Shown here piece by piece: positions 32,957 through 48,352 of a stretch of 64,000 bases of DNA. A program made the translations under genes and the position numbers. The stretch comes from a virus. The stretch's first letter is position 1. Each line of letters starts with the position of its first letter. The stretch lies in the IMG/VR virus record IMGVR_UViG_3300021197_001787, positions 62,001-126,000 of that record, one strand, 5' to 3'. Under the pieces are notes generated by a model. The model was not told the origin of the DNA. It saw only the letters and a program-made list of their open reading frames with translations, and made no database searches.

Positions 32957-33011
32957 ATTATACCAGTTCTCGCGCGTTAAGTCAAGCTGTCACATGTCAA
33001 AAGAATGTCAA
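32957..33011 (-). promoter_or_regulatory. Three-box promoter, copy 1
   Basis: TTGACA (33006-33011), 5 nt, TTGACA (32995-33000), 9 nt, TTGACT (32980-32985, the -35), 17 nt, TATAAT (32957-32962). Drives the 22-residue microprotein. Confidence 0.75.
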
Positions 33012-33212
33012 GCGCATAAGTAGTTGGAATCGTTGGTGATACACGGCATTGTAAGTCATTGATATACTGCATCTTTCCTGTCACATGAACTCACACATTG
33101 ACAAACAGTGTGTAAGGGTCTATATATTAAATCTAAACACACAAACAGTCACATTAAAACAGAACAATATAATACACACCGCATTGTCTGACACATAACT
33201 ACGCACATAACA

Positions 33213-33404
33213 CTAACCACCAACAGCCACTATAGGATTATACAGGCCATCTACTACAGGTATAGCAATCGTCTGTATGCATTTAAGAGAGTTATTATAT
33301 AATGTATAGTTATTCTCATCCTTGTCTACTACAACACAATAGCCCTTTGCGCTGTTAGTTATATTATATTTACTTATGAGTTCTCCGGCCTTAAACATCT
33401 TCAC
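33213..33404 (-). CDS. Small beta-rich protein, KVGDLV-like (63 aa)
   Basis: With a GTG start at 33404 it overlaps the gene before by exactly 14 nt. MFKAGELISKYNITNSAKGYCVVVDKDENNYTLYN keeps the K-x-G-E-L-I opening and the G-Y-C-V-V-V strand, a divergent family member. The ATG at 33398 is an alternative start. Confidence 0.58.
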   Translation of the reverse strand: MKMFKAGELISKYNITNSAKGYCVVVDKDENNYTLYNNSLKCIQTIAIPVVDGLYNPIVAVGG

Positions 33405-33714
33405 AGTCCTTGGCTAATACGTCAGCTTCAACCGCCTGTTTCGTCATCTCAGCAATATCAGCAACTGTTAGTTTAACTTCTTTTCTATGTTTATTCTGTT
33501 CTCTCACGAGTTTATTGTAACGCTTCTTCTCGTATGCATTTACATGTAGGTTCTCAATACCCAACGCTTCCAGCTTTGACTTGAATAGTTTAACATCTTG
33601 TAGTCTCGCTGAGTCTTTGCCTACTCTTGAATCCGCGCGAGTTATGACGACTTCGCGAAAGTTCAAACGGCCTTCAACCATTTTAAGTATTGTTTGAGAG
33701 ATATAGTATTTCAT
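33391..33714 (-). CDS. Hypothetical basic protein (107 aa)
   Basis: A charged helical protein (SKLEALGIENLHVNAYEKKRYNKLVREQNKHRKEVKL) with a strand-like N-terminus (KYYISQTILKMVEGRLNFREVVIT). No known motif. Its end (KDCEDV) overlaps the next start by 14 nt. Confidence 0.6.
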   Translation of the reverse strand: MKYYISQTILKMVEGRLNFREVVITRADSRVGKDSARLQDVKLFKSKLEALGIENLHVNAYEKKRYNKLVREQNKHRKEVKLTVADIAEMTKQAVEADVLAKDCEDV

Positions 33715-34064
33715 AATAAAAGAGGGATCTTTGCGGCGGCCCAGTTCCGTTTATCACTGTTCAGCAATAAAGGAGAAGTAGAGTCTTTGTTTATGGTCGC
33801 GCTCTACTCGACTAGTTTGCTCTGGCTTCTATGTTTATAAGGCTGGCGGCTCTCCTATTATTCCAGCGCGTTATCATGAGGGTGGCTAATCCTCTTATAG
33901 CCGTTACTGTAGGATCTTCATTATCTTTAACCTCAAGGGTTAGGGTTGGACATCTTACTCTGCGACACATACAGGCCCGTCGCAGCACTCGGCACTATGG
34001 AGTTGGGGGTTTTCATTTTCTTTACTTTACCTCTCGCGCTTTGCGCTTTACGGGTTAGGTGTGA
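33715..34064. other. 350-bp stretch without a supported gene
   Basis: Open frames here (for example the plus-strand ones at 33831 and 33946) have no ribosome-binding site or recognisable protein. A 27-codon minus frame (MKTPNSIVPSAATGLYV) exists but is weak. A small RNA or a decayed gene is possible. No three-box promoter was found. Confidence 0.4.
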
Positions 34065-34154
34065 TTATAGGATAGCTTCGCCGATTGCGATACCAAGCCC
34101 AAAGGCAAGGAGCAAGAGCGGACTAAAAAAGAGGATTCCAAGAAAGTCGTTCAT
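34065..34154 (-). CDS. Membrane microprotein (29 aa)
   Basis: MNDFLGILFFSPLLLLAFGL and nine more residues, one transmembrane helix. The ATG follows the upstream TAA directly, so translation is probably coupled. Confidence 0.5.
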   Translation of the reverse strand: MNDFLGILFFSPLLLLAFGLGIAIGEAIL

Positions 34155-34556
34155 TTAGATGCCCTCACCAGCAGCTAGCGCAGCAAGATCGGCCTTCTCT
34201 TCATCGCTAAGGTGTTCCTTGGCTTTGTTGCGGAGGCTGGCTGCGCTCATCTTGGTGGGGTTCTTATGCTCACCGTTGCAGCCATCAGCAAAAGACTGCG
34301 CGCCTTCTGGTGTGTTGTAGTCAATGACGGCTTGCTTGCCCTGCGTTGTGGAGTTGCGGAATACGCGCCACATCTGAGGACCAACTTGCTCAACAGTCCA
34401 GCCGGTGAGTTGGCGACGAGTTGGCGGTGCGGGCAGTGGCTTGTATGCTTTCTTACGGCTTGACGTGACTTCGATGTTGTTAATCATCGGGTCAGGGCGA
34501 TACCGAAAGTTGTCGTTAGAGTCAGTGAGTTGGTCGAGGCTGAATGATGTTGGCAT
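34155..34556 (-). CDS. Hypothetical protein (133 aa)
   Basis: AAGGAG before the ATG and a three-box promoter (34585-34639) support it. The centre (QLTGWTVEQVGPQMWRVFRNSTTQGKQAVIDYNTPEGAQSFADGCN) is beta-rich with aromatic residues and the end (LRNKAKEHLSDEEKADLAALAAGEGI) is helical. No family recognised. Confidence 0.68.
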   Translation of the reverse strand: MPTSFSLDQLTDSNDNFRYRPDPMINNIEVTSSRKKAYKPLPAPPTRRQLTGWTVEQVGPQMWRVFRNSTTQGKQAVIDYNTPEGAQSFADGCNGEHKNPTKMSAASLRNKAKEHLSDEEKADLAALAAGEGI

Positions 34557-34584
34557 TGATATATCTCCTTACTTGATATACTAT

Positions 34585-34639
34585 ATTATACACTAAAAAT
34601 GGGGGAAAGTCAACAACTAAGTTGTCAAGAGAATGTCAG
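34585..34639 (-). promoter_or_regulatory. Three-box promoter, copy 2
   Basis: CTGACA (34634-34639), TTGACA (34623-34628), TTGACT (34608-34613), 17 nt, TATAAT (34585-34590). Box 1 holds the stop codon of the 43-residue gene upstream. Confidence 0.8.
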
Positions 34640-34767
34640 GTAGTTTGTGACAAGAGGATAAGAGAGAAAAGCATCAGAGCATTGACCCTGATCATTGTCT
34701 GGCAAAACTCGCGCGATACCAAGTGAAGGGCGATAGGGTGAAGGTTGGATTGTCCGCGAAGTTTCAT
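34636..34767 (-). CDS. Membrane microprotein (43 aa)
   Basis: Starts MKLRGQSNLHPIALHL and ends with a hydrophobic segment (VNALMLFSLILLSQTT). AAGGAAAGAACATT precedes the ATG and promoter copy 3 lies upstream. The TGA stop lies inside the next promoter. Confidence 0.5.
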   Translation of the reverse strand: MKLRGQSNLHPIALHLVSREFCQTMIRVNALMLFSLILLSQTT

Positions 34768-34785
34768 AATGTTCTTTCCTTGTTT

Positions 34786-34802
34786 GGTATAACCATTATA
34801 CC
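34786..34802. repeat. Inverted repeat GGTATAA-n3-TTATACC over the -10 box
   Basis: A perfect 7-bp inverted repeat overlaps the -10 box of promoter copy 3. The same 17 bp recur at 35055-35071 in copy 4. It may be an operator. Confidence 0.5.
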
Positions 34803-34850
34803 ATTAAAAGCAGGTGATTGTCAACAACTAAGTTGTCAAGAGAATGTCAG
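34795..34850 (-). promoter_or_regulatory. Three-box promoter, copy 3
   Basis: CTGACA (34845-34850), TTGACA (34834-34839), TTGACA (34819-34824), 18 nt, TATAAT (34795-34800). Confidence 0.78.
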
Positions 34851-34853
34851 GGA

Positions 34854-35036
34854 CTAGTCAATAGACTCAACACTACAAGTATCTTCATCACCCACATTCT
34901 CAATGATATTGCCGTTCCAATCCTCATCTTCTTCGATCTCGTCTACAAGCTCTTGCTGGAACTCAATCAGGCGATCGAGCAGTTCCGAAGCATCGGCGTT
35001 GCGGGCGGTAATGTCAAATGTCAGTCGGTATGTCAT
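34854..35036 (-). CDS. Hypothetical acidic protein (60 aa)
   Basis: YRLTFDITARNADASELLDRLIEFQQELVDEIEEDED is a strand plus a long acidic helix. AAGGAAAAAAGACT precedes the ATG and promoter copy 4 lies upstream, so it is well supported as a gene. Function unknown. Its fold could mimic nucleic acid, since it is strongly acidic. Confidence 0.65.
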   Translation of the reverse strand: MTYRLTFDITARNADASELLDRLIEFQQELVDEIEEDEDWNGNIIENVGDEDTCSVESID

Positions 35037-35054
35037 AGTCTTTTTTCCTTGTTT

Positions 35055-35071
35055 GGTATAACCATTATACC
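35055..35071. repeat. Inverted repeat GGTATAA-n3-TTATACC, second copy
   Basis: Same 17 bp as at 34786-34802, again over the -10 box of a three-box promoter. Confidence 0.5.
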
Positions 35072-35118
35072 AGAAATGTGGGGGTAAGTCAACAACTAAG
35101 TTGTCAAGAGAATGTCAG
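35064..35118 (-). promoter_or_regulatory. Three-box promoter, copy 4
   Basis: CTGACA (35113-35118), TTGACA (35102-35107), TTGACT (35087-35092), 17 nt, TATAAT (35064-35069). Box 1 contains the stop of the upstream gene. Confidence 0.8.
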
Positions 35119-35339
35119 TCGTTGCAGCAATCGGGGTGTTCCCAGTTGCTCACTTGCCAGTCGCTAATACTACCGGAGTAATGGAGCGCATCAACGAAGT
35201 TGCTCCAAGCCTCGGAGCGCGCTGGAATATCAACGTGTCCAAGGTTCTGCTCATCCTCTTGAATCATCGGAAGGATAAGATCAATAAACTGCTCGCGGGC
35301 AGTCTCCCAAAGAGTAACGGTGTCGAGTTGTGAAGCCAT
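35115..35339 (-). CDS. Hypothetical protein (74 aa)
   Basis: ATG at 35339 with AAGGAG upstream; the longer frame is not used. ASQLDTVTLWETAREQFIDLILPMIQEDE is helical, and the end (WQVSNWEHPDCCND) is acidic with a double cysteine. Its stop codon is in promoter copy 4. Confidence 0.65.
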   Translation of the reverse strand: MASQLDTVTLWETAREQFIDLILPMIQEDEQNLGHVDIPARSEAWSNFVDALHYSGSISDWQVSNWEHPDCCND

Positions 35340-35368
35340 AGAATAATCTCCTTTCTTTCTATACATAT

Positions 35369-35422
35369 AATATAACCCGTTGAGAGGTAAAAGCAAGCAA
35401 GATCGTGTCAGGGAAATGTCAA
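35369..35422 (-). promoter_or_regulatory. Three-box promoter, copy 5
   Basis: TTGACA (35417-35422), CTGACA (35406-35411), TTGCTT (35391-35396), 16 nt, TATATT (35369-35374). Box 1 contains the stop of the KVGDLV gene ending at 35419. Confidence 0.75.
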
Positions 35423-35595
35423 GAGATTACCATCAAGTTTCGCTCACTAATAACTTCAGTTTTACTATTCGACCACAGGATCATCCACCATACGGTTGAC
35501 CATTGGTGGCTCTCGGCATTTTTGACAACGACGCCCACAGGCGCTGATTTGCGGAACTGATCGCGCCGCCACTTAACAAGATCACCTACTCTCAT
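35419..35595 (-). CDS. KVGDLV-family small protein (58 aa)
   Basis: MRVGDLVKWRRDQFRKSAPV, then GVVVKNAES and VWWMILWSNSKTEVISERNL. ATGA overlap with the fused protein upstream. A typical short member, terminal in its chain. Confidence 0.78.
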   Translation of the reverse strand: MRVGDLVKWRRDQFRKSAPVGVVVKNAESHQWSTVWWMILWSNSKTEVISERNLMVIS

Positions 35596-36083
35596 CCTGC
35601 CACCTCAAGATCGCGTTCTGGGAATGTCGGCCATCCGAATCTTTTACTATCTGACATGTCACCAATCCAAGCGATGCGAGCGAAGCCACAGCCGCCTTCT
35701 GCCATCACAAGCCCAACCTTGCCGGCGTAGCCTTGACGGGTTGCGCGCTTGTTGGTTTTACCTCTCACCAGTTGGCCAACCTTAAACTTTGGTGGCTTCG
35801 GAAGTAGGGACTCGATCATCTGAGTCGCGTTGTCACGGAATGAGCCGGCAAAATAGTCAGACTGCATATCTGAGTAGTCATCACAGCGGCGAACGTGGAA
35901 GTTGCAGGCGTCGGCCTCAAGTTGAGCAGCCGTATCGCTTGCCATCGCTCCGTTAGCCAGGAATGAACCAACATAGCCGTTATGCTGGAAACTCCAGCGC
36001 GTTCCGTTATACTCTACATCAATATCAATACCTTGCTTCTTGAAGTGAGTTTTGATTTTCTTGATTACTGCTTTTACTTTCAT
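35592..36083 (-). CDS. Two-domain protein with C-terminal KVGDLV-type domain (163 aa)
   Basis: Residues 1-100 are a separate alpha/beta domain (KAVIKKIKTHFKKQGIDIDVEYNGTRW, then DNATQMIESLLPK). From about 103, FKVGQLVRGKTNKRATRQGYAGKVGLVMAEGGCGFARIAWIGD is a KVGDLV-type barrel. This fusion shows that the small barrel can also work as an appended domain. ATGA overlaps on both sides. Confidence 0.72.
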   Translation of the reverse strand: MKVKAVIKKIKTHFKKQGIDIDVEYNGTRWSFQHNGYVGSFLANGAMASDTAAQLEADACNFHVRRCDDYSDMQSDYFAGSFRDNATQMIESLLPKPPKFKVGQLVRGKTNKRATRQGYAGKVGLVMAEGGCGFARIAWIGDMSDSKRFGWPTFPERDLEVAG

Positions 36084-36256
36084 GCTACCACCTTCATGTC
36101 TTCATCTTTAACCCAGCCGCTTGTGCGCGTCTTCGGATAGAATACCTGCATCAACGTGGGAACCGCATCATGGAACCGTAGCACCACACCAAGATTTCCC
36201 TCTTTACCGCTACTCAGCCTGTATTTGCTTTGAACCATGCTTCCGACTTTGATCAT
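36080..36256 (-). CDS. KVGDLV-family small protein (58 aa)
   Basis: IKVGSMVQSKYRLSSGKEGN, then LGVVLRFHD and LMQVFYPKTRTSGWVKDEDM. GGAGAG upstream of the ATG at 36256 and promoter copy 6 drive it. Its stop overlaps the next start as ATGA. Confidence 0.72.
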   Translation of the reverse strand: MIKVGSMVQSKYRLSSGKEGNLGVVLRFHDAVPTLMQVFYPKTRTSGWVKDEDMKVVA

Positions 36257-36281
36257 AGATTTCTCTCCTTTCTATACATAT

Positions 36282-36335
36282 AATATAACCCACTGAGAGT
36301 GAAACGCAAGGCTATTTGTGTCAAGGAAATGTCAG
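36282..36335 (-). promoter_or_regulatory. Three-box promoter, copy 6
   Basis: CTGACA (36330-36335), TTGACA (36319-36324), TTGCGT (36304-36309), 16 nt, TATATT (36282-36287). Box 1 contains the stop of the gene ending at 36332. Confidence 0.77.
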
Positions 36336-36511
36336 TAAACGAGTTGGATGTGTTCTTTTCTCACCGTCTCGCGCTTTCCGTCAGCAGCCCACTCGACGAT
36401 CCACCAGTCGCTCGGCAGCGACAGCGCAGGCCCGACAATGATCCCAACCGGACCCCAACCTTTGCTTGATGCACCATAGTGATTTCTTCGCACCAAGTTG
36501 CCGACTTTCAC
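36332..36511 (-). CDS. KVGDLV-family small protein (59 aa)
   Basis: GTG start at 36511, overlapping the upstream stop as GTGA. MKVGNLVRRNHYGASSKGWG, then PVGIIVGP and WWIVEWAADGKRETVRKEHI. The end ETVRKEHIQLV is shared with the member at 47870, 11 kb away. Confidence 0.75.
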   Translation of the reverse strand: MKVGNLVRRNHYGASSKGWGPVGIIVGPALSLPSDWWIVEWAADGKRETVRKEHIQLVY

Positions 36512-36669
36512 GCACTTACCAATACGGTTACGTCAGCAGCGCCGGCAATAATGTTGCGCGGGTGCTTTTGAGGTTTGATGTGAACACCATCCTCATCAAT
36601 CTCAATAACTACACCCAACTTTGATCCATAGTGTTTTGTTCTTACTCTTACCAAATCGCCTACTTTCAT
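36508..36669 (-). CDS. KVGDLV-family small protein (53 aa)
   Basis: ATG at 36669. MKVGDLVRVRTKHYGSKLGV, then VIEIDEDGVHIKPQ, ends DVTVLVSA. A compact member; its stop is the GTGA overlap. Confidence 0.75.
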   Translation of the reverse strand: MKVGDLVRVRTKHYGSKLGVVIEIDEDGVHIKPQKHPRNIIAGAADVTVLVSA

Positions 36670-36673
36670 AATC

Positions 36674-37024
36674 TTACCAGTTCCTTGGATCGTTAGCATC
36701 CCACACATCATGTGTTTGTGCTTTTGAAAGTCGTTTATCCTTGACCTTCAGGTTAAAGTTTCGCCGGCTTGCTGCTCGGCTATGCATTTTCGCTTCTTCA
36801 CGTGCATCCATACCGCGCTGGATCATATCATCCTCTGCGAGTGTAAATGTGCGGCCTTCCAAGCTATCGTCAGCTACGCGACCAGATTGCTCCATCAGAT
36901 CGTGACAGAGTTCAAAAGCAGGTTGGCCGTTGCTATCAACGCGGCTGCCGGCTTCATGAAGCAAATCCATAATCAGTTCAAGCTCTCGCTCGGTCACTCG
37001 GATATTCAAAATCTCGTCAGACAT
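36674..37024 (-). CDS. Hypothetical helical protein (116 aa)
   Basis: LNIRVTERELELIMDLLHEAG is an amphipathic helix pair, followed by an acidic central part (ADDSLEGRTFTLAEDDMIQRG) and a basic C-terminus (SRAASRRNFNLKVKDKRLSK). No known family. It follows the 37-residue microprotein directly. Confidence 0.6.
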   Translation of the reverse strand: MSDEILNIRVTERELELIMDLLHEAGSRVDSNGQPAFELCHDLMEQSGRVADDSLEGRTFTLAEDDMIQRGMDAREEAKMHSRAASRRNFNLKVKDKRLSKAQTHDVWDANDPRNW

Positions 37025-37138
37025 TTACGCTCCACACGTGCAGTTAGCCCATTGAAAGGCGAGGAAGATAAGACCAGACCAACAGGTCAGATCAGCGATA
37101 ATAAGAGCGGCCATCATGCCGTTGCGGTTTTGAAGCAT
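37025..37138 (-). CDS. Membrane microprotein (37 aa)
   Basis: MMAALIIADLTCWSGLIFLAF is a transmembrane helix, and the C-terminus (WANCTCGA) has two cysteines. GGAGAAAGCAA precedes the ATG and promoter copy 7 lies upstream. Confidence 0.5.
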   Translation of the reverse strand: MLQNRNGMMAALIIADLTCWSGLIFLAFQWANCTCGA

Positions 37139-37162
37139 TTGCTTTCTCCTTTCTATACATAT

Positions 37163-37217
37163 AATATAACACCGGAAGGGGCGATCGTCAAGGTTTAAGT
37201 TGTCAGGGGCTTGTCAA
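37163..37217 (-). promoter_or_regulatory. Three-box promoter, copy 7
   Basis: TTGACA (37212-37217), CTGACA (37201-37206), TTGACG (37186-37191), 17 nt, TATATT (37163-37168). The stop of the gene ending at 37195 lies in the spacer. Confidence 0.77.
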
Positions 37218-37395
37218 CAAGTGAAAGATGTTGACTACATTCGGTTAGTGGCTCTGGTTCGTTGGTCCACAAAACTTTAACGTCACGGTTGCCACTAAAC
37301 TTTCCTGTCTCGATAATCAAGCCAACATGGACAGATTGACCTTTACGCCAGCGTGGGCGCTGATACCAATACGTCACCAGATCACCGACTTTCAT
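37195..37395 (-). CDS. KVGDLV-family small protein (66 aa)
   Basis: ATG at 37395, overlapping the lipoprotein stop by exactly 14 nt. MKVGDLVTYWYQRPRWRKGQ, then HVGLIIETGK and VKVLWTNEPEPLTECSQHLS. Ends VDKPLTT. Confidence 0.77.
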   Translation of the reverse strand: MKVGDLVTYWYQRPRWRKGQSVHVGLIIETGKFSGNRDVKVLWTNEPEPLTECSQHLSLVDKPLTT

Positions 37396-37615
37396 ATTCA
37401 ACCTTGGTTGTCTTCACATAGAAAATAACCTTATCGCCCGGTTTAACGTGCTTAAGCTGTCTTTTATTGAGCTTTACCCACATTGCGGAGTCTGGTGCAT
37501 TTACAATCTCAACAGGAACCATCCGATCAAAGTACATTTGATCATCCAGCACGGTGCCGTTCATCTTGGCGCGTGTTGCGCAGCCAACTAAAAGCAGTGG
37601 AACTATAAATCTCAT
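37382..37615 (-). CDS. Small lipoprotein (77 aa)
   Basis: MRFIVPLLLVGCATRAK has a lipobox ending at Cys12. The rest is beta-rich (MWVKLNKRQLKHVKPGDKVIFYVKTTKVEYESR). PGDKVIF is KVGDLV-like, suggesting the exported part is a barrel of the same kind. Its last three sense codons and stop lie within the 14-nt overlap with the next gene. Confidence 0.68.
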   Translation of the reverse strand: MRFIVPLLLVGCATRAKMNGTVLDDQMYFDRMVPVEIVNAPDSAMWVKLNKRQLKHVKPGDKVIFYVKTTKVEYESR

Positions 37616-37954
37616 TTATGCAACCTTGGCCCTTTGAGCATCGACATGCTTACACTTACGCCGCCAGCCAAAACCGGGACACGTACACGTCCACGTGCCG
37701 CCGTTGTCGGTCACGGTATAAGTGTTGCCAGTGCTGCCTTGGACCTCGTATGAGGTAACGTCAGCCGGTTGTGCCGGTGCTTCTCGTTCCTCAACGATCA
37801 TATACTCACCAACCCGGTCAAGTGTTAGGGTTTCTGGCACTTCAACCCAATGTTGACCAGACACAGCCCACTTCTGGCCGGCCCTATCGGTGTAAAGCAT
37901 TGGGTTCATACTGACCACAATAGGCAGCGTTTTATTCTTCGTTGTCATCTTCAT
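37616..37954 (-). CDS. SWIM zinc-finger protein (112 aa)
   Basis: The C-terminus NGGTWTCTCPGFGWRRKCKHVDAQ has the CxC...CxH spacing of SWIM zinc fingers. The N-terminus (ADVTSYEVQGSTGNTYTVT) is beta-rich. SWIM domains bind DNA or protein and often accompany recombination or transposition functions. It overlaps the gene before by 23 nt. Confidence 0.7.
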   Translation of the reverse strand: MKMTTKNKTLPIVVSMNPMLYTDRAGQKWAVSGQHWVEVPETLTLDRVGEYMIVEEREAPAQPADVTSYEVQGSTGNTYTVTDNGGTWTCTCPGFGWRRKCKHVDAQRAKVA

Positions 37955-38192
37955 TCTCCGTGGAAGGTCTATGGTTGAGGTAAATATCGGTCATGTCTTT
38001 TGACCAGAAGTCGTCGTACCCTGATACATAATAAGGGCTGATCTCAACTGGATTGCGCTCAAAAAAGTCCTCCAGCATTGAAACGATTTCTTCCATACGA
38101 AGTTCACGAGCAGACTTGTTTTCGTCGGCTTTGGCTTCAGCCATGGCCTTCTTCTTCTCGCGGTATTCGTCAAGGTTTACTATCTCTCCCAT
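37932..38192 (-). CDS. Hypothetical acidic helical protein (86 aa)
   Basis: VNLDEYREKKKAMAEAKADENK, then RELRMEEIVSMLEDFFERNP; both ends are strongly charged. The ATG at 38192 overlaps the upstream stop (TGATG). No known family. Confidence 0.58.
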   Translation of the reverse strand: MGEIVNLDEYREKKKAMAEAKADENKSARELRMEEIVSMLEDFFERNPVEISPYYVSGYDDFWSKDMTDIYLNHRPSTENEDDNEE

Positions 38193-38527
38193 CAAAACGG
38201 CCTGCTATCGCTCATTGGTGAACACTCCCAAACCTTCGGGTGCATGATCACCGGGCCACCAGTTGTGTACTTGGCGAGATTCACGTGACAGGAAGTTGTC
38301 ATAGAATGAAAGCCGTTGGCTGGTGCAGTGAAGTCGGCGATGATGCAGACACCAGCCGGAGTACGTTCGCCGATCTTTAAGTCATAGCTGAATAGCTCCG
38401 CGCTTCCATTTGGATATGATATGCTTGTTAAAGAACACCTGTGATTACGCGCACTTACGCCGTTCCTCCAAGCATCAAGCACGCCGTCATTTGTGCGAGA
38501 CTTACCATAGATCCCCAGCGCGTTCAT
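38192..38527 (-). CDS. Conserved phage protein, unknown function (111 aa)
   Basis: MNALGIYGKSRTNDGVLDAW is a start I associate with a recurrent phage protein of unknown function. It continues IADFTAPANGFHSMTTSCHVNLAKY. It overlaps the gene before by 4 nt (ATGA). Confidence 0.62.
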   Translation of the reverse strand: MNALGIYGKSRTNDGVLDAWRNGVSARNHRCSLTSISYPNGSAELFSYDLKIGERTPAGVCIIADFTAPANGFHSMTTSCHVNLAKYTTGGPVIMHPKVWECSPMSDSRPF

Positions 38528-38712: not shown

Positions 38713-38734
38713 TTTATCTCCTTTCTATACTATA

Positions 38735-38789
38735 AATATAGCATTAAATAGTTTAATCGTCAAGCATTAAGTTGTCAAGACTCGCTGAC
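38735..38789 (-). promoter_or_regulatory. Three-box promoter, copy 8
   Basis: TTGACA (38773-38778), TTGACG (38758-38763), 17 nt, TATATT (38735-38740). Box 1 is degenerate (GTCAGC at 38784-38789). Box 2 contains the stop of the upstream gene. Confidence 0.7.
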
Positions 38790-40521: not shown

Positions 40522-40575
40522 AATATAACGTGTTGGCAGTGCTTTGCAAGCGATATTGTGTCAAGCAAATGTCAA
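40522..40575 (-). promoter_or_regulatory. Three-box promoter, copy 9
   Basis: TTGACA (40570-40575), TTGACA (40559-40564), TTGCAA (40544-40549), 16 nt, TATATT (40522-40527). Box 1 contains the stop of the gene ending at 40572. Confidence 0.77.
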
Positions 40576-42067: not shown

Positions 42068-42117
42068 GGTGTTTTTCTCCGAGAGAGATGAATGTTGTTT
42101 CTTTGCCTTACTCTATA

Positions 42118-42171
42118 AATATAACACGGTAAGGCTTTTCGTCAAGTATTTTCGTGTCAGGGAAATGTCAA
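42118..42171 (-). promoter_or_regulatory. Three-box promoter, copy 10
   Basis: TTGACA (42166-42171), CTGACA (42155-42160), TTGACG (42140-42145), 16 nt, TATATT (42118-42123). Confidence 0.77.
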
Positions 42172-42175
42172 GAGA

Positions 42176-42307: not shown

Positions 42308-42327
42308 TTTTGTTCCTATCCAAAAGA

Positions 42328-42412: not shown

Positions 42413-42421
42413 CATGTTTAT

Positions 42422-42476
42422 AATATAGCCGCTTTACCCTCACCCGTCAAGGTGAGAGTTGTCAAGCGAATGTCAA
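42422..42476 (-). promoter_or_regulatory. Three-box promoter, copy 11
   Basis: TTGACA (42471-42476), TTGACA (42460-42465), TTGACG (42445-42450), 17 nt, TATATT (42422-42427). It sits 10 nt before the tRNA-Leu 5' end. Box 1 contains the stop of the zinc-knuckle gene. Confidence 0.8.
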
Positions 42477-43360
42477 GAAAAATCATAGTGTTCTTGCAGG
42501 CTGAGAGCCTTGATAGCTTCAAGGGTATCGCCTTCGGGATACTTATATTGCCAGTTGCGAGACTTGTTAAACTTGTTTCCGGTCGTCGGAAACTCGCGGC
42601 GAATGGCCTCTTTCATGCTTTTCTCAGATGGCTCAAGCCAGCCGGCCGGAGGATCAAGAGTGGGGAGAAGTGATGCCATTGGCGGCCTCTCATCTACGGT
42701 GAGCGCATACTCGCGAGCTTCACCAAGAGCCTTTATAAGGTTACCAAGGGAGTCACGCGATGTCCACCGGTGTTGGTTTGAGTCCGCGATTTTACGAGCA
42801 TCAACGTGATAGACGACAAGTGCTGACTGACGTGCGACAGATGCATCCCAGTCCACAGACTTGATGTACCGGAGTTGATTGTGCATGCGCCACTCACCGC
42901 CAGAGTCATAGCCACTTGCACGGATAGGCACCATGGAGCCAACGCCAATGCCCATGTTGACGGCATGTTCAAGCGCGGCAATGCGCTCACGGCGAGTCTG
43001 TTCAATAAAAACCTGCTTATCCACCTTAACAGCCTTGCACGTGCGCCGTGTATGTCCTGTCTTGTGACAGTATCCACAAGTCACATTCTTCATGCGCGCT
43101 GCCTTGGATGCCTTGTTGGTAACCTTCTCGCCGGTAGCAAGATCAATCTTGGTGCGCTTCAAATATAGTTGACGCTGATGCTCGGCGCGGTCGTCATACC
43201 ACTGGGCATCGTTTTCGTTGCCGGCTTCGCGTTCTTTCACAGCCATCAACGTAGCGCCGATATACCGATCTTTAACTTCTTCTGTGAGTACGGGACACTT
43301 ACGTTTGTTGTGTCCCTGACGATAGCAGTGGGAGCAGGTTACGGTACCATTGTATGACAT
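42473..43360 (-). CDS. Zinc-knuckle protein (CCHC x2, 295 aa)
   Basis: TCSHCYRQGHNKRKCPV near residue 9 and TCGYCHKTGHTRRTCKAV near residue 94 are two CCHC zinc knuckles. The rest is helical and basic, ending LEAIKALSLQEHYDFS. Zinc knuckles bind single-stranded RNA or DNA. Promoter copy 12 and GGAG before the ATG support the gene. A recombination or RNA-binding role is possible. Confidence 0.78.
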   Translation of the reverse strand: MSYNGTVTCSHCYRQGHNKRKCPVLTEEVKDRYIGATLMAVKEREAGNENDAQWYDDRAEHQRQLYLKRTKIDLATGEKVTNKASKAARMKNVTCGYCHKTGHTRRTCKAVKVDKQVFIEQTRRERIAALEHAVNMGIGVGSMVPIRASGYDSGGEWRMHNQLRYIKSVDWDASVARQSALVVYHVDARKIADSNQHRWTSRDSLGNLIKALGEAREYALTVDERPPMASLLPTLDPPAGWLEPSEKSMKEAIRREFPTTGNKFNKSRNWQYKYPEGDTLEAIKALSLQEHYDFS

Positions 43361-43384
43361 ATATTGTCTCCTTTCTATACTTAT

Positions 43385-43438
43385 AATATAACGTGATGAC
43401 AGCGTTTAGCAAGCGATATTGTGTCAAGCAAATGTCAA
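43385..43438 (-). promoter_or_regulatory. Three-box promoter, copy 12
   Basis: TTGACA (43433-43438), TTGACA (43422-43427), TTGCTA (43407-43412), 16 nt, TATATT (43385-43390). It abuts a leftover of the KVGDLV junction (AAGTCGGTGATCT). Confidence 0.78.
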
Positions 43439-43442
43439 GAGA

Positions 43443-43634
43443 TCACCGACTTGGGTTAATAACCGCCAACCATTTCTTAGGCTCCCATGAGGCTTCTGCA
43501 TCTTCAATCCAATAAACTTTAACTCGCTCTAATCTTGGAGTACCGCGATTGATGCCATCAGGCTTTGTTCGCAAAATGATACCTGTTGCTTTTTCAATAG
43601 CACCGGGCATGTGTACCAAATCACCTACTTGCAC
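43443..43634 (-). CDS. KVGDLV-family small protein, chain A gene 5 (63 aa)
   Basis: GTG at 43634, 6 nt after GGAGG; the ATG at 43649 lies before that ribosome-binding site. (V)QVGDLVHMPGAIEKATGIIL, then LERVKVYWIEDAEASWEPKK. Ends LAVINPSR. 14-nt overlap with the gene before. Confidence 0.75.
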   Translation of the reverse strand: MQVGDLVHMPGAIEKATGIILRTKPDGINRGTPRLERVKVYWIEDAEASWEPKKWLAVINPSR

Positions 43635-43812
43635 TGATAACCTCCACATCTTGAAGCATCGCAAACATAAACCTAAGATGGTAAGCTGTAGATGGCTTAA
43701 CAATAGCTCCACGATTGCCGCCAATAGACTTTAGCTCTGTGACCAATCCGATTATATCAGGCTGGAGTGCCGGAGCCCTTCGCTTAACTCTCACCAGATC
43801 ACCGACTTGCAT
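43621..43812 (-). CDS. KVGDLV-family small protein, chain A gene 4 (63 aa)
   Basis: ATG at 43812 (MQVGDLVRVKRRAPALQPDI), then IGLVTELKSI, then YHLRFMFAMLQDVEVISASR. Both its start and its stop lie in 14-nt overlaps. Confidence 0.78.
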   Translation of the reverse strand: MQVGDLVRVKRRAPALQPDIIGLVTELKSIGGNRGAIVKPSTAYHLRFMFAMLQDVEVISASR

Positions 43813-43966
43813 TGATCGCCTTCCCGCCCCAACTGTTGACCCAATACTCAAGCCTTCCATCCATCGAGCGCACTAATACGTCGCCCCTGTCATTGGCTTT
43901 GATAGCGATACCGATGTATGCCTCTATACTTGGCAGCTTCACGCTAATCAGATCACCGATTTGCAT
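43799..43966 (-). CDS. KVGDLV-family small protein, chain A gene 3 (55 aa)
   Basis: ATG at 43966. MQIGDLISVKLPSIEAYIGI, then AIKANDRGD, then YWVNSWGGKAINASR. Too short for the usual gene-call threshold but flanked by exact 14-nt overlaps on both sides. Confidence 0.72.
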   Translation of the reverse strand: MQIGDLISVKLPSIEAYIGIAIKANDRGDVLVRSMDGRLEYWVNSWGGKAINASR

Positions 43967-44141
43967 TGACTAACTCCATTTGTCTCGTTCTAATCGGAAA
44001 GGGATCTTCATAGCCGGGTATCAGGACATAGAATATATCTGTGTGAGTCCTTGGCTCGCTGACAAAGAAGAACCGTTCCACCACCAAGCCCACAGGCTTG
44101 CCGTCTACCGTTGTGCATCTAACCAGATCACCGACTTGCAT
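43953..44141 (-). CDS. KVGDLV-family small protein, chain A gene 2 (62 aa)
   Basis: ATG at 44141. MQVGDLVRCTTVDGKPVGLV, then VERFFFVSEPR, then IFYVLIPGYEDPFPIRTRQM. Ends ELVNANR. Confidence 0.78.
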   Translation of the reverse strand: MQVGDLVRCTTVDGKPVGLVVERFFFVSEPRTHTDIFYVLIPGYEDPFPIRTRQMELVNANR

Positions 44142-44283
44142 CAACCACCTCCAAGAGTCTCGGCAACATGTGGAACACCATACCATGCTTAGGGAAGTTG
44201 ACGAGCCAGCCGTCATTTTCCCACGCCAAGATGACACCGATGTTACCATCCATAGTCTCACGAACCAAACTGCCGACTTGCAT
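44128..44283 (-). CDS. KVGDLV-family small protein, chain A gene 1 (51 aa)
   Basis: ATG at 44283 after GGGAG, first gene of the five-gene chain. MQVGSLVRETMDGNIGVILA, then WENDGWLVNFPKHGM, ends PRLLEVVDASR. Confidence 0.72.
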   Translation of the reverse strand: MQVGSLVRETMDGNIGVILAWENDGWLVNFPKHGMVFHMLPRLLEVVDASR

Positions 44284-44304
44284 AACTCTCCCTTTCATAC
44301 ATAT

Positions 44305-44359
44305 AATATAACACCGCGAAGCGGTTAGCGCCAGTTTTTTCGTGTCAAGAAGATGTCAT
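44305..44359 (-). promoter_or_regulatory. Three-box promoter, copy 13
   Basis: ATGACA (44354-44359), TTGACA (44343-44348), a weak -35 (TGGCGC at 44328-44333), 17 nt, TATATT (44305-44310). A short perfect hairpin (ACCGC/GCGGT) lies in the spacer. Drives chain A. Confidence 0.65.
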
Positions 44360-45006
44360 GACTTTTTTGGTTTAGGGGCTTTCTTCAGCCGGCGTTCCTC
44401 AACCCAAAAGGCCACCGTTGAACCAACAGGCAGAATCTTATAACGCTTTGAACCCTTGGCGGCAGAAATAACATAGTTCGTGATGGCCATAACAAAGCCC
44501 CCACGCAGTCGGAAGTCTTTGAGTGTGCGTGGACCAAGCCGGCCAGAATCAACCGCAATCAAATCGCGAGACGAGCATGCTGCATTTGCCAGCATATAAT
44601 CGCCAATCTTGTACTTTGGTTGCTTTTTTGCTTCTGCAATAACCTTTTGGGCAAACTTATTGCTAACCATCTTCATGAATGCATGCCGCGGGGGAACTAC
44701 ATCATTCTGAATGTCCGAAACCAAATCGCGAAAATATGGGGGATTGTGTTGGTAGTAGTAAGCCAACACATCAGCCCATTGTGACCAGTTTTTATTATAT
44801 TCCTCTGGCCATGCATTGAGCTTAGCAACTTGTTCCGGTGTGTTCTCATTAAAAATGCGAGTAAGAACCTCCATTTGCTTTTCAGAAAGACGGCGGCCGC
44901 GATCAATCTGGTCAACGATTGATTCACAGAATCCACGCGACCATTGCGTTAGGGTCGGATAGTCTTGTATTTCGCTGATTCTTGCTTTGATTGCGCGTTC
45001 TGTCAT
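44356..45006 (-). CDS. Hypothetical protein with C-terminal barrel domain (216 aa)
   Basis: The N-terminal part is helical (IQDYPTLTQWSRGFCESIVDQ). The C-terminal third (KYKIGDYMLANAACSSRDLI, then LPVGSTVAFWVEERRL) looks like a KVGDLV-type barrel appended to a larger protein. Its stop is in box 1 of promoter copy 13. No exact three-box promoter was found upstream, only a TATATT. Confidence 0.6.
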   Translation of the reverse strand: MTERAIKARISEIQDYPTLTQWSRGFCESIVDQIDRGRRLSEKQMEVLTRIFNENTPEQVAKLNAWPEEYNKNWSQWADVLAYYYQHNPPYFRDLVSDIQNDVVPPRHAFMKMVSNKFAQKVIAEAKKQPKYKIGDYMLANAACSSRDLIAVDSGRLGPRTLKDFRLRGGFVMAITNYVISAAKGSKRYKILPVGSTVAFWVEERRLKKAPKPKKS

Positions 45007-45076
45007 TGTGTCCTGTACTTAAATATACTGAAAAGGGAAAATTTTGGCGAAGAAAAAATCGCGGATCGGGCTGGTA

Positions 45077-45451
45077 CTAATACGTTGCACTACGCTCGAT
45101 GTGGATGTCAAACCCCCACCCTTGAACCTCATTGTCATCCATTTCCTCACCGATACGGACGAAGCGGTAATACTCATTCGCATCGACTTCCTTGCCCTCA
45201 ACTTCAATGCGCTCGCCCTCACACCAATCCATAAAGTCTACAAGGGCCTGTACACACTCATAGTTATCGTACCACTTGATGCCGCCCCAACGGAACAGGA
45301 ATGCACCCTTCTCGTCGTTGTAGTCTTTGATCATTTCATCATGATCCGCCCAACACAACTCGCGTGCTTGTGGTGACTTTGCCATTGTGATCATAAACTG
45401 AGGCATAACCTCTGGTCCGACTGCCAAGATAACTTCTGAACGATAACCCAT
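45077..45451 (-). CDS. Hypothetical phage protein (124 aa)
   Basis: ATG at 45451, after AAGGAG, downstream of promoter copy 14. MGYRSEVILAVGPEVMPQFM, then FLFRWGGIKWYDNYECVQAL and EYYRFVRIGEEMDDNE. This beta-rich layout is seen in a conserved phage protein of unknown role. Confidence 0.68.
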   Translation of the reverse strand: MGYRSEVILAVGPEVMPQFMITMAKSPQARELCWADHDEMIKDYNDEKGAFLFRWGGIKWYDNYECVQALVDFMDWCEGERIEVEGKEVDANEYYRFVRIGEEMDDNEVQGWGFDIHIERSATY

Positions 45452-45474
45452 GTGTATTTTCTCCTTACACTTAT

Positions 45475-45528
45475 AATATAACACCCGGCTGTACAAATGC
45501 AACCCACATCTTGTCAACTAAATGTCAA
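45475..45528 (-). promoter_or_regulatory. Three-box promoter, copy 14
   Basis: TTGACA (45523-45528), TTGACA (45512-45517), TTGCAT (45497-45502), 16 nt, TATATT (45475-45480). The stop of the upstream gene lies between box 1 and box 2. Confidence 0.77.
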
Positions 45529-46003
45529 GAGCTTTTTGATAGTGAAAGGTTCCACGATCGCTATGCTTATTGACAAACTTTTTAACGCTTAGTTTCAGTT
45601 TGGACTGCTCGGTTTTATAACGCTGCTTGGTCATATGTTTGATGGCAAGATTGTCAGCCTCCCAGCCATCGGGGGAATACTCATCATCTTCCAACAAAAT
45701 ATCAATAAAGTCGCCAAGAGAAATAGACCAAACATATTCAACACCGGTTTTTTTCTTGTAAACCAGAAACATCATCACGATATTACGGTCGTCTTGTGTA
45801 AGATTGTGATATTTCCAGCCATCAAACCATTGGGTTCCTTGTTGTTTTTTTAACTCTACTTTCTCTTGTGTCTGATCATTAACAAAATCGTAAAGTGTCT
45901 CATCCACTCGTCGGAATCCAATCAAAGCGGGTCCGAAGGCTTTTTCACCAGAGCCGTATCCACTCACGTTAATCTCAGACAAGACCCTTTTATCCAACTG
46001 CAC
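45518..46003 (-). CDS. Hypothetical protein, coupled to a KVGDLV gene (161 aa)
   Basis: GTG start at 46003, in an exact 14-nt overlap with the KVGDLV gene upstream. The product (QLDKRVLSEINVSGYGSGEK, then FLVYKKKTGVEYVWSISLGDFIDILLED, then KHMTKQRYKTEQSKLK) is alpha/beta with a basic tail and is not a family member. It shows that the junction can carry unrelated cargo. Confidence 0.68.
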   Translation of the reverse strand: MQLDKRVLSEINVSGYGSGEKAFGPALIGFRRVDETLYDFVNDQTQEKVELKKQQGTQWFDGWKYHNLTQDDRNIVMMFLVYKKKTGVEYVWSISLGDFIDILLEDDEYSPDGWEADNLAIKHMTKQRYKTEQSKLKLSVKKFVNKHSDRGTFHYQKALDI

Positions 46004-46163
46004 TGATCACCTCACATTCGTCATCGTATCCCTCAACAATACGGCCATCATTTGTTCTAACAAAAACCTTTTCGGGATAAGTCCGCTTATCCATTTCCAT
46101 GATCATACCAATCTCGGACCACTCAGCATTAACCCAGATTTTCACCATGTCTCCCACCTTCAT
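45990..46163 (-). CDS. KVGDLV-family small protein (57 aa)
   Basis: ATG at 46163, after GGAG. MKVGDMVKIWVNAEWSEIGM, then IMEMDKRTYPEKVFVRTNDG. Ends ECEVISAVG, whose codons also encode the start of the next gene. Confidence 0.76.
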   Translation of the reverse strand: MKVGDMVKIWVNAEWSEIGMIMEMDKRTYPEKVFVRTNDGRIVEGYDDECEVISAVG

Positions 46164-46186
46164 GTTTTTCTCCTTTCTATACTTAT

Positions 46187-46241
46187 AATATAGCACCCAC
46201 ACGGGCTGTTGTCAATGTCTAAGTTGTCAACTAATCGTCAA
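46187..46241 (-). promoter_or_regulatory. Three-box promoter, copy 15
   Basis: TTGACG (46236-46241), TTGACA (46225-46230), TTGACA (46210-46215), 17 nt, TATATT (46187-46192). The stop of the gene ending at 46231 lies between box 1 and box 2. Confidence 0.77.
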
Positions 46242-46578
46242 CAACAAAATGTACACCGATGGGTGCTACACCTCTCGGAACCTCCCCGTCAACAATGCCG
46301 CCGTGCTTTGCTAATACCGTAGTTACCACTTGAACAGGCACGTATGCGTACACCGTTTGTGTGGGAGAGTCGGGTTCTTCGGCATAGTCCATAATCAAAT
46401 CCTCTACGTGACTTGGAAAGCCTACCTCAACTTCTTCGTATCTGTCGGCACCATTGATCCTCGGCGAACAATATGCGCCAACATGAGCTTGGACACTCAT
46501 CTTGAACCCATCGGCGCATACAACCATCCGATTCCGGTTGGACCCTGCTGTATTAAAAAACTCATTCGCACTGCTCAT
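46231..46578 (-). CDS. Hypothetical protein (115 aa)
   Basis: MSSANEFFNTAGSNRNRMVV, then VEVGFPSHVEDLIMDYAEEP and TVYAYVPVQVVTTVLAKHGG. It is beta-rich with an acidic loop. 1-nt overlap with the KVGDLV gene before. Function unknown. Confidence 0.6.
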   Translation of the reverse strand: MSSANEFFNTAGSNRNRMVVCADGFKMSVQAHVGAYCSPRINGADRYEEVEVGFPSHVEDLIMDYAEEPDSPTQTVYAYVPVQVVTTVLAKHGGIVDGEVPRGVAPIGVHFVVDD

Positions 46579-46877
46579 TATTCAAACTCTCCTATTTTGA
46601 CATATTTCAAATCGTTCCTAAGAAAATATGCATCTTCTTTGGCCTTGTTAAAACTTCTACCCCAGCGGCCGTGTGGGCCGTCGTTCTGCATCCATTTTAC
46701 ATAGTATCTCTTCTTTTCATTCTGGGATGTCCAAGAATACACCTTTGGTATTGTTTCTATCTGCACAACCAAACCAACGAGCGGGCGCTTCTCAATCCAG
46801 ATCCGTTTTGACCACCTACGCAAGTCATTTGTTTGTAAAGCATAAGACGATAACGTCACTAAATCACCTACTTTCAT
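46578..46877 (-). CDS. KVGDLV-family protein (99 aa)
   Basis: MKVGDLVTLSSYALQTNDLR, then VGLVVQIETIPK, then RYYVKWMQNDGPHGRWGRSF. Longest free-standing member. 14-nt overlap with the gene before. Confidence 0.76.
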   Translation of the reverse strand: MKVGDLVTLSSYALQTNDLRRWSKRIWIEKRPLVGLVVQIETIPKVYSWTSQNEKKRYYVKWMQNDGPHGRWGRSFNKAKEDAYFLRNDLKYVKIGEFE

Positions 46878-47067
46878 TCAACACCTCCTTATCTAAATAC
46901 ACAACTTCATAGTTTGTTTCGTCTATCACACATCTCATATCATCAACCCATACAACCCACAATCCATCATTGGGAGCCTCATACTCTTCTAGTACAATGC
47001 TAGGGTTGGACCAATCTTCTAAACCAAACCCTATCGGCTTGAAAGATATTAGATCACCAACTTTCAC
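46864..47067 (-). CDS. KVGDLV-family protein (67 aa)
   Basis: GTG start. MKVGDLISFKPIGFGLEDWS, then IVLEEYEAPN, then GLWVVWVDDMRCVIDETNYE. Ends KEVLNESR. Exact 14-nt overlap at both ends. Confidence 0.78.
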   Translation of the reverse strand: MKVGDLISFKPIGFGLEDWSNPSIVLEEYEAPNDGLWVVWVDDMRCVIDETNYEVVYLDKEVLNESR

Positions 47068-47305
47068 TAATCACCTCAAGGGCATTTTCTGCGAAGCCTG
47101 TAGATAAGTGACCATTATCCCACAAAACGTCAACACTCCTGCCGACTCTTGTAGCCCAGCCTTGGTTTTTCACTCTGACTTCTTCTGGCATCCAGCCATC
47201 ATGCAATGCCACTATAATGCCGGTGCGCTTGCCTGTATCTGGCGTCTTTTTGCCCTTGAATACAACAAGGTTACCATTTTGCTTAACAAGATCGCCTAGC
47301 TTCAC
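47054..47305 (-). CDS. KVGDLV-family protein (83 aa)
   Basis: GTG start. MKLGDLVKQNGNLVVFKGKK, then TGIIVALHDG, then RVGRSVDVLWDNGHLSTGFA. Ends LEVISESW. 23-nt overlap with the gene before. Confidence 0.78.
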   Translation of the reverse strand: MKLGDLVKQNGNLVVFKGKKTPDTGKRTGIIVALHDGWMPEEVRVKNQGWATRVGRSVDVLWDNGHLSTGFAENALEVISESW

Positions 47306-47474
47306 TTATAACCTCCAACATTTTAATAAATTCAAAAGTAATCTCCCCGTCAAACCATTGAATCTTGGCAACAGATTTGCCGTGATCAATGGAAGTCTCT
47401 TTAGGCCCAATCATGATTACGATACCTCGATGATCGTGGTCGTGCCGGCTATGTACCAAACTTCCGACTCTCAT
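47283..47474 (-). CDS. KVGDLV-family protein with extended C-terminus (63 aa)
   Basis: MRVGSLVHSRHDHDHRGIVI, then MIGPKETSI, then AKIQWFDGEITFEF; ends LEVISEARRSC. In the overlap a GGT to GGC change in the next gene's Gly codon removes the usual TGA, so this protein gains three residues. Confidence 0.75.
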   Translation of the reverse strand: MRVGSLVHSRHDHDHRGIVIMIGPKETSIDHGKSVAKIQWFDGEITFEFIKMLEVISEARRSC

Positions 47475-47809
47475 GCTTGCACCATCTGTGGGGTTGCATC
47501 AATGTAGTATGATCGATCTGACATGCGTTCCCAGCATGTCTCAGTCCAGTCACCAAAAATCTTCCAAAGATCCTTACTCTTCATTTCCTTCATCTTATCG
47601 TGGTCCCACTCAAACGCTTCCGTTTGCTCGCCATCGGTGTCGCGATAGGCATAGCACTCATTCATCACTTGCAGGGCAGACTCTTCATCACTGACGCTCA
47701 AGAAGTCCAGTATATCAGCTATAGCCGCCAACGCACAACCCTTCTCCGTCAAGTGGATCGAGGTAAACATTTCGCTCTCGTATGTTCCGTGTAAAACCCA
47801 AAGTTTCAT
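47471..47809 (-). CDS. Hypothetical protein (112 aa)
   Basis: AAGGAGAAAA before the ATG; promoter copy 16 lies upstream. MKLWVLHGTYESEMFTSIHL, then CALAAIADILDFLSVSDEES, then WDHDKMKEMKSKDLWKIFGD. Alpha/beta, acidic; no known family. Confidence 0.65.
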   Translation of the reverse strand: MKLWVLHGTYESEMFTSIHLTEKGCALAAIADILDFLSVSDEESALQVMNECYAYRDTDGEQTEAFEWDHDKMKEMKSKDLWKIFGDWTETCWERMSDRSYYIDATPQMVQA

Positions 47810-47828
47810 TTTTTCTCCTTATACATAT

Positions 47829-47873
47829 AAGATAACACCAATACCCTCAACCGTCAAGTTAAGAGAATGTCAG
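47829..47873 (-). promoter_or_regulatory. Two-box variant of the three-box promoter, copy 16
   Basis: CTGACA (47868-47873), a shortened middle, TTGACG (47852-47857), 17 nt, TATCTT (47829-47834). The middle TTGACA box is missing (CTTAAC). Box 1 contains the stop of the gene ending at 47870. Confidence 0.65.
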
Positions 47874-48079
47874 CAAACGAGTTGGATGTGTTCTTTTCTT
47901 ACAGTCTCAGGGTTTCGGCGTTTACCATTTCCAAACCAAAAGATAATCCTCCAGCCCGCGTCTTCGGAGTCTTCCGGGGGCAATAGGCCGGTCATCCCGG
48001 GATGGGCTTCGTATGCGATAATAATCCCCATTGATTGTCCGGGCCGCGCGGTGCATTGTACCAAATCACCTACTTTCAT
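47870..48079 (-). CDS. KVGDLV-family protein (69 aa)
   Basis: MKVGDLVQCTARPGQSMGII, then WRIIFWFGNGKRRNPETVRK. The end ETVRKEHIQLV is shared with the member at 36332. The stop lies in promoter copy 16. Confidence 0.76.
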   Translation of the reverse strand: MKVGDLVQCTARPGQSMGIIIAYEAHPGMTGLLPPEDSEDAGWRIIFWFGNGKRRNPETVRKEHIQLVC

Positions 48080-48082
48080 TAT

Positions 48083-48286
48083 CTACCTGCCCGCATTTCG
48101 TGCGTCTTGCATGCTGCCCACGTACTGATATGCACCCTTGTTATACAATGGGGCTGTACACTTCTTTCTATGCTCGGAGGTTTCTTGTGCGTACTGCTCA
48201 CCACACTCCAAACAATGCTCATACCCCAAAGCTCTACGCTTGGGGTTGAACTCTTCGCCGCAGTCAAAACATTGTGGCCAATCCAT
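48083..48286 (-). CDS. Zinc-ribbon-like protein (67 aa)
   Basis: CFDCGEEFNPKRRALGYEHC, LECGEQYAQETSEHRKKC. Two CxxC pairs make a zinc ribbon, with a later cysteine and histidine. ATG after GGAGAG, driven by promoter copy 17. Such ribbons often bind nucleic acid or proteins. Confidence 0.62.
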   Translation of the reverse strand: MDWPQCFDCGEEFNPKRRALGYEHCLECGEQYAQETSEHRKKCTAPLYNKGAYQYVGSMQDARNAGR

Positions 48287-48307
48287 CTCTTCTCTCCTTA
48301 CCCTTAT

Positions 48308-48352
48308 AAGATAACGCCGCTGTCGCTAAACGTCAAGTCAAAAAGATGTCAA
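48308..48352 (-). promoter_or_regulatory. Three-box promoter, compact form, copy 17
   Basis: TTGACA (48347-48352), TTGACT (48336-48341) directly abutting TTGACG (48331-48336), 17 nt, TATCTT (48308-48313). Box 1 contains the stop of the gene ending at 48349. Confidence 0.66.

What the first reader, a model, noticed from the sequence alone, without database searches (positions are those of the whole stretch)
32957..48352. Seventeen copies of a three-box promoter define the accessory region
Each copy has two TTGACA/CTGACA boxes 11 bp apart, a gap of 9 bp, a -35-like box (TTGACG, TTGACT, TTGCNN), 16-18 bp, and TATAAT or TATATTATA. Spacing is almost invariant, with two shortened copies (47829, 48308) and one with a weak -35 (44305). 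None was found left of 32.9 kb or right of 48.4 kb, where plain sigma70-type promoters occur. The upstream boxes may bind a phage activator or a second polymerase subunit.
Basis: partly seen in the sequence, partly recalled or inferred. Interest (0 to 1): 0.8.

Follow-up and report, generated by a model that had tools for sequence, protein, structure and literature searches.

The report
Phage promoters with two extra boxes
A large, uncultured group of probably marine bacteriophages drives a block of small accessory genes from many copies of one unusual promoter, an ordinary bacterial promoter preceded by two identical binding boxes at fixed spacing, which suggests an undescribed switch protein that turns the block on together.

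Summary
The window (62-126 kb of a 194-kb T4-related IMG/VR phage record) has 17 copies at the stated places: 14 with both boxes, one lacking box 1, two shortened by exactly 10 bp. All lie on the coding strand, and no further full copies exist in the 194 kb. Dinucleotide shuffles give none.

It is not a one-genome curiosity. The pattern recurs in over 117 IMG/VR stretches (302 distinct copies in fetched DNA) and in one early-type gene cluster in each of nine near-complete genomes sharing about 60 core proteins. Changing either spacing by 1 bp removes it: 227 of 266 true-spacing copies have a -10 box, against 0 of 39 and 1 of 22 controls. It is essentially absent from 84,980 bacterial and archaeal genomes; BLAST found none in named phages.

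The boxes (YTGACA, 3' half invariant) are read differently from the -35 (TTG invariant, rest loose). The -35 is weaker than in the same phages' plain promoters. Best reading: a sigma70 promoter class activated from tandem 11-bp direct repeats by a phage-encoded DNA-binding protein not yet identified. An extra sigma-region-4 contact or a host response regulator is less likely. New variant of a known kind (phage-activated promoter).

The parts
32957..33011 (-). three-box promoter copy (box 1 at the high end, -10 at the low end)
   Evidence: exact boxes, TTGACT, TATAAT
34585..34639 (-). three-box promoter copy
34795..34850 (-). three-box promoter copy
35064..35118 (-). three-box promoter copy
35369..35422 (-). 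three-box promoter copy (TTGC-type -35)
36282..36335 (-). three-box promoter copy (TTGC-type -35)
37163..37217 (-). three-box promoter copy
38735..38778 (-). copy with box 2, -35 and -10 but no box 1
40522..40575 (-). three-box promoter before the VWA-type protein ORF 39253-40500 (PHROG phrog_1314)
42118..42171 (-). three-box promoter before the ATPase ORF 40988-42067 (phrog_1297)
42422..42476 (-). three-box promoter of tRNA-Leu(TAA); the tRNA 5' end (42413) lies 8 bases below the -10, where transcription should start
43385..43438 (-). three-box promoter before ORF 42473-43360 (two CCHC-type knuckles)
44305..44359 (-). three-box copy with poor -35 (TGGCGC) and ATGACA as box 1
45475..45528 (-). 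three-box promoter copy (TTGC-type -35)
46187..46241 (-). three-box promoter copy (box 1 TTGACG)
47829..47873 (-). shortened copy: CTGACA 16 bp above TTGACG, -10 TATCTT (10 bp deleted)
   Evidence: sequence
48308..48352 (-). shortened copy: TTGACA 16 bp above TTGACG, -10 TATCTT (10 bp deleted)
   Evidence: sequence
32543..32583 (-). two YTGACA pairs without a promoter, next to a C-rich non-coding element; similar box pair plus C-rich element in G012, G019, G032
14739..15077 (-). candidate reader 1: 112-aa Fis/NtrC-type helix-turn-helix protein, present in all nine genomes
   Evidence: folds match but not at significant E-values

Best explanation
Each copy is a sigma70-type promoter (TTG[A/C]-type -35, 16-18 bp, TATAAT or TATATT, then a ribosome-binding site and a gene or tRNA) with a tandem operator just upstream: two direct repeats C-YTGACA, 11 bp apart, centred near -48 and -59. 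I think a phage-encoded DNA-binding protein sits on the two repeats on one face of the helix and helps host RNA polymerase, probably through the alpha-subunit C-terminal domains, at promoters whose -35 has drifted from consensus. The accessory block is thereby one co-regulated unit, separate from the phage's box-less promoters. Shown here: the anatomy, fixed spacing, restriction to this phage clade, co-occurrence with a core promoter, and the weaker -35. Two small proteins present in all nine genomes are candidates: the Fis/NtrC-type HTH protein (window 14739-15077) and a protein resembling ribbon-helix-helix (record 128040-128387).
For: Spacing is exact: nine genomes give 91 relaxed copies at 11/15 bp against 0-2 per genome when either spacing is shifted. 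In IMG/VR, 227 of 266 copies at the true spacing have a -10, against 0 of 39 and 1 of 22 in the shifted-spacing controls. The boxes and the -35 have different profiles: boxes T2, A4, C5, A6 fixed and positions 1 and 3 loose; -35 T1, T2, G3 fixed and positions 4-6 loose (each element left out in turn). The -35 is TTGACA in 13 of 75 three-box promoters against 39 of 54 plain ones (Fisher P = 5e-10; 9e-7 if only TTGA-type -35s are compared), and plain ones carry an A-tract that three-box ones lack. The motif is absent from cellular genomes except one phage-like contig and one chance match. In that contig's 2.9-Mb MAG all four box pairs are on the phage-like contig. Box pairs also stand without a promoter, so a protein other than polymerase probably reads them.
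Against: No expression or binding data. No reader is proven, and the candidates are core genes of the clade, so their co-occurrence with the boxes is not independent. The core promoters look fairly strong already (17-bp spacer, often TGn before the -10). A repressor could also use such sites. A host factor is not excluded, because the host is unknown.
Confidence: 0.55

Rival explanations
1. The boxes are extra -35-like contact sites read by a sigma region 4 domain: that of host sigma70, or of the phage's stand-alone 82-aa sigma-region-4 protein (record 127795-128043).
For: The boxes equal the -35 consensus TTGACA and share the preceding C. The genome has a stand-alone Sigma70_r4 protein (E = 1e-10) with over 200 IMG/VR relatives and an invariant recognition helix.
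Against: Position-by-position tolerance is opposite to that of the -35. The protein is absent from G002, G007 and G028, which have the promoters. Its helix (SFARVKQIE) differs from sigma70 (TRERIRQIE) at two of the base-contacting residues (residue roles from general knowledge). Box 2 to the -10 is 32 bp, too far for one holoenzyme.
Confidence: 0.12
2. A host OmpR/PhoB-family response regulator binds the boxes, so the phage block follows a host stress signal such as phosphate starvation.
For: A hexamer-N5-hexamer direct repeat is the geometry of PhoP boxes, and on the other strand the boxes read TGTCA-N6-TGTCA, like an E. coli Pho box (Pho box from general knowledge). Salmonella PhoP boxes work in reverse orientation upstream of -35 (PMC3335776). 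Host PhoB binds some cyanophage promoters (PMC10976474).
Against: The full motif is absent from cellular genomes, and box pairs are absent from the rest of the only MAG with a related contig. The distance to the -10 (32 nt) is one at which a reverse PhoP box did not work (28-32 nt). No OmpR-type domain in the phage. One signal governing a whole block in diverse phages is unexpected.
Confidence: 0.15
3. The boxes are operators for a phage repressor that shuts the block off after early infection.
For: The core promoters look usable without help; box pairs also occur away from promoters.
Against: Sites at -48 and -59 do not overlap the polymerase contact zone. The -35 is weaker than in plain promoters, the usual sign of activation.
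Confidence: 0.13

Closest known systems
T4 middle promoters (MotA/AsiA)
   Same: A phage-wide promoter class in a T4-related phage, sigma70 -10, separate activator site upstream of the core.
   Different: The MotA box replaces the -35 near -30 (from general knowledge); here a -35 is present and two boxes lie further up.
Lambda CII promoters (TTGC-N6-TTGC)
   Same: Phage activator using direct repeats about one turn apart with sigma70 polymerase.
   Different: CII repeats flank the -35 (from general knowledge); here the pair is 11 bp apart and entirely upstream of the -35.
OmpR/PhoB-family boxes (Salmonella PhoP, E. coli PhoB)
   Same: Hexamer-N5-hexamer direct repeat, 11-bp period, in reverse orientation as in PhoP architecture V (PMC3335776).
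   Different: 32 nt to the -10; no such regulator in the phage; no matching host sites found.
UP-element sigma70 promoters
   Same: Upstream element adding to a -35/-10 core.
   Different: Three-box promoters have specific hexamers instead of the A-tract seen in the same phages' plain promoters.

Membership tests
sigma70-type promoter | -35 TTGACA-like, 16-18 bp spacer, TATAAT-like -10 | tested here: met
   Leave-one-out profiles: TTG 93-100%, spacer mostly 17, TATAAT/TATATT
sigma70-type promoter | transcription starts 6-9 nt below the -10 | not testable with these tools
   Only indirect: the tRNA-Leu 5' end falls there
T4 MotA middle promoter | MotA box centred near -30 in place of a -35 | tested here: not met
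   -35 is present; boxes are 15 and 26 bp above it
lambda CII-type promoter | direct repeats flanking the -35 | tested here: not met
   Both repeats lie upstream of the -35
OmpR/PhoB-family box | direct hexamer repeats with 11-bp period | tested here: met
   Spacing exact at 11 bp; shifts abolish it
OmpR/PhoB-family box | cognate winged-helix regulator (PF00486) in the phage | tested here: not met
   No match at E <= 1 in the phage record
OmpR/PhoB-family box | the same boxes in the host regulon | tested here: inconclusive
   Only on the phage-like contig of one MAG; host unproven
promoter read by the phage sigma-region-4 protein | protein present wherever the promoters are | tested here: not met
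   Missing in G002, G007, G028
T4-related phage (carrier) | gp17-type terminase and gp23 capsid | tested here: met
   Terminase_6N and Gp23 matches in Pfam and PHROGs

The most novel reading that the evidence does not exclude
One phage protein of an undescribed activator family binds the tandem YTGACA repeats both at all accessory-block promoters and at the promoter-less box pairs beside the C-rich non-coding element at the end of the block. That element would be a replication-origin-like or boundary site, so the same protein would couple the block's transcription to replication or genome organisation in this clade.
Probability: 0.15. Interest if true: 0.8.

Novelty: new variant of a known kind. 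Interest (0 to 1): 0.6.

Why it matters
Gene regulation in uncultured T4-related phages is almost unknown. This gives a promoter signature with hundreds of exact copies that marks the accessory block, predicts start sites, and can be tested directly. It implies a regulator that no database model describes, and it lets accessory (probably host-takeover) genes be recognised in metagenomes by sequence alone.

Tried and rejected
An accidental control: my first multi-genome pattern had the box spacing 1 bp too long and found nothing in 49 records; the corrected pattern hit 28 of 49 with no reversed-pattern hits. G018 and G034 share one identical pattern match without a -10 and lack the clade's marker protein: taken as chance. 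Considered and rejected: repeat/iteron-only reading (copies are tied to -35/-10 and genes); two overlapping promoters using a box as -35 (no -10 at the matching distance); host regulon as the plain source (absent from GTDB genomes). The ribbon-helix-helix guess for the conserved 115-aa protein was not confirmed by Pfam or PDB sequence searches; Foldseek's best hit was the RHH antitoxin RelB, not significant. The Fis-type candidate gave many Fis/NtrC HTH matches, also none below E = 0.8. An inverted repeat across the -35 is confined mainly to a few promoter lineages (24 of 302, control 8). Literature searches found no description; one query was malformed.

Full report
WHAT WAS CLAIMED AND WHETHER IT IS THERE. 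All seventeen exist on the minus strand. Fourteen have both boxes 11 bp apart and box 2 exactly 15 bp above the -35. One (-35 at 38763) lacks box 1. Two (47829 and 48308) are shortened so that box 1 lies 16 rather than 26 bp above the -35: one helical turn is missing and the second box overlaps the -35. Exact boxes plus TTG at these distances occur 12 times in the window and never in 200 dinucleotide-preserving shuffles. The window is 62001-126000 of a 194,231-bp IMG/VR virus record; scanning the rest of that record gave no further full copy.

WHAT CARRIES IT. The record encodes a T4-type terminase and gp23 capsid, but a DnaE/PolC-type DNA polymerase and a UvsX-type recombinase. About 94% of ORFs are on one strand. 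The block that holds the promoters has 45-51% G+C against about 35-40% to its left and carries mostly small genes of unknown function, plus a VWA-type protein, an ATPase and tRNA-Leu.

IT DEFINES A CLADE, NOT ONE PHAGE. Nine near-complete genomes share roughly 60 core proteins. Each has 3-14 copies, all on the coding strand in one cluster (some clusters run across the contig ends), 91 in all; shifting either spacing by one or more bases gives 0-2 per genome. Across IMG/VR, the same pattern with box spacing +1 or -35 gap +1 gives only 39 and 22 scattered single matches, of which 0 and 1 have a -10, against 227 of 266 for the true spacing. In 84,980 bacterial and archaeal genomes a stricter pattern hit two contigs: a phage-like 12.9-kb contig in a Marinimicrobia MAG, with genes like those of this block, and one single match. 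BLAST with a consensus found nothing convincing in named phages.

TWO PROMOTER CLASSES. Leaving each element out in turn (n = 74-79) gives: box 1 and box 2 = (C)YT[G, rarely T/A]ACA, with positions 2, 4, 5 and 6 essentially fixed; -35 = TTG nearly fixed, then A 72%/C 28%, C 68%, last base free; then a 17-bp spacer, often TGn, and TATAAT or TATATT. The intergenic plain promoters of the same genomes are different: 39 of 54 have a perfect TTGACA, and an A-rich tract precedes it where the boxed class has none. In boxed promoters only 13 of 75 have TTGACA (Fisher P = 5e-10; 9e-7 restricted to TTGA-type). A weakened -35 beside an upstream operator is the usual sign of an activated promoter (inference). 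The copy at 42422-42476 serves tRNA-Leu: the tRNA's 5' end lies 8 bases below its -10, just where transcription should start.

WHAT READS THE BOXES. They are unlikely to be spare -35 elements, because their tolerance profile is the reverse of the -35's. The phage does encode a stand-alone 82-aa sigma-region-4 protein with four conserved cysteines (Pfam PF04545, E = 1e-10), with more than 200 relatives in IMG/VR, usually directly downstream of another conserved small protein (68 of 80). But it is absent from three of the nine genomes and from other three-box records. Its recognition helix differs from sigma70 at two residues that touch the -35 (residue roles from general knowledge). No OmpR-type regulator was found in the phage, although the hexamer-N5-hexamer geometry is that of such regulators and reverse-oriented PhoP boxes upstream of the -35 are known to work (PMC3335776). 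Host PhoB is known to bind some cyanophage promoters (PMC10976474). Against a host regulator: the 2.9-Mb MAG holding the only related cellular contig has all four of its box pairs on that contig. Two small proteins occur in all nine genomes and could be readers. One is a Fis/NtrC-like HTH protein (window 14739-15077). The other is the protein beside the sigma-region-4 gene, whose strand-helix-helix layout resembles ribbon-helix-helix; it is present in every record of at least 160 kb with real three-box promoters and absent from the two chance hits. Neither assignment is statistically significant, and both are core genes, so co-occurrence proves little.

BOXES WITHOUT PROMOTERS. At the downstream end of the block in G000 (window 32543-32583), G012, G019 and G032, box pairs stand next to a C-rich non-coding stretch with a shared core (CCCCCCTACCCCCC...GGAATnTATGTC) and no promoter. 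This points to a protein that recognises the boxes independently of polymerase. What the element does is unknown.

VERDICT. A real, spacing-locked, clade-wide promoter class, most likely activated by an unidentified phage protein bound to tandem direct repeats. It differs from T4 middle, lambda CII and PhoP/PhoB promoters in where the repeats lie and what surrounds them, hence 'new variant of a known kind'. No published description was found in the searched open-access library; that is not proof of absence.

Noticed in passing
window 32430-32900; G012 83200-84100; G019 4750-5150; G032 102600-103100: Conserved non-coding element at the end of the accessory block: promoter-less YTGACA pairs beside a C-rich stretch (CCCCCCTACCCCCC...GGAAT). 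Possibly an origin or boundary element.
   Followed up: partly
record G000:127795-128387 (-), just right of the window (L129): Operon of a small conserved helical protein and a stand-alone sigma-region-4 protein with four cysteines, with many relatives in IMG/VR; arrangement reminiscent of T4 late-transcription cofactor genes.
   Followed up: partly
window 13409-13752 (-): tmRNA gene on the phage, predicted tag ANNNNHFESVRLAA.
   Followed up: no
window 62267-63847 (-) and record 139848-140126 (-): Phage GroEL (chaperonin family E = 8e-142) and a GroES-like small protein, conserved in all nine genomes.
   Followed up: no
record G000:193190-194212 (-): FtsZ/tubulin-family GTPase (Pfam Tubulin, E = 3.5e-8).
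   Followed up: no
window 42422-42476 and copies in L026, L031, L042, L046, L055, L070, L072: The tRNA-Leu promoter and its relatives carry an inverted repeat across the -35 (CTCACC...GGTGAG; CTCGCC...GGCGAG) kept through paired changes.
   Followed up: partly
window about 30-49 kb, minus strand: Several short proteins (58-86 aa) with an N-terminal VGDLV-type motif, possibly paralogues.
   Followed up: no
window 33000-51000: G+C is 45-51% in the accessory block against about 35-40% to its left, suggesting a different origin or codon pressure.
   Followed up: no
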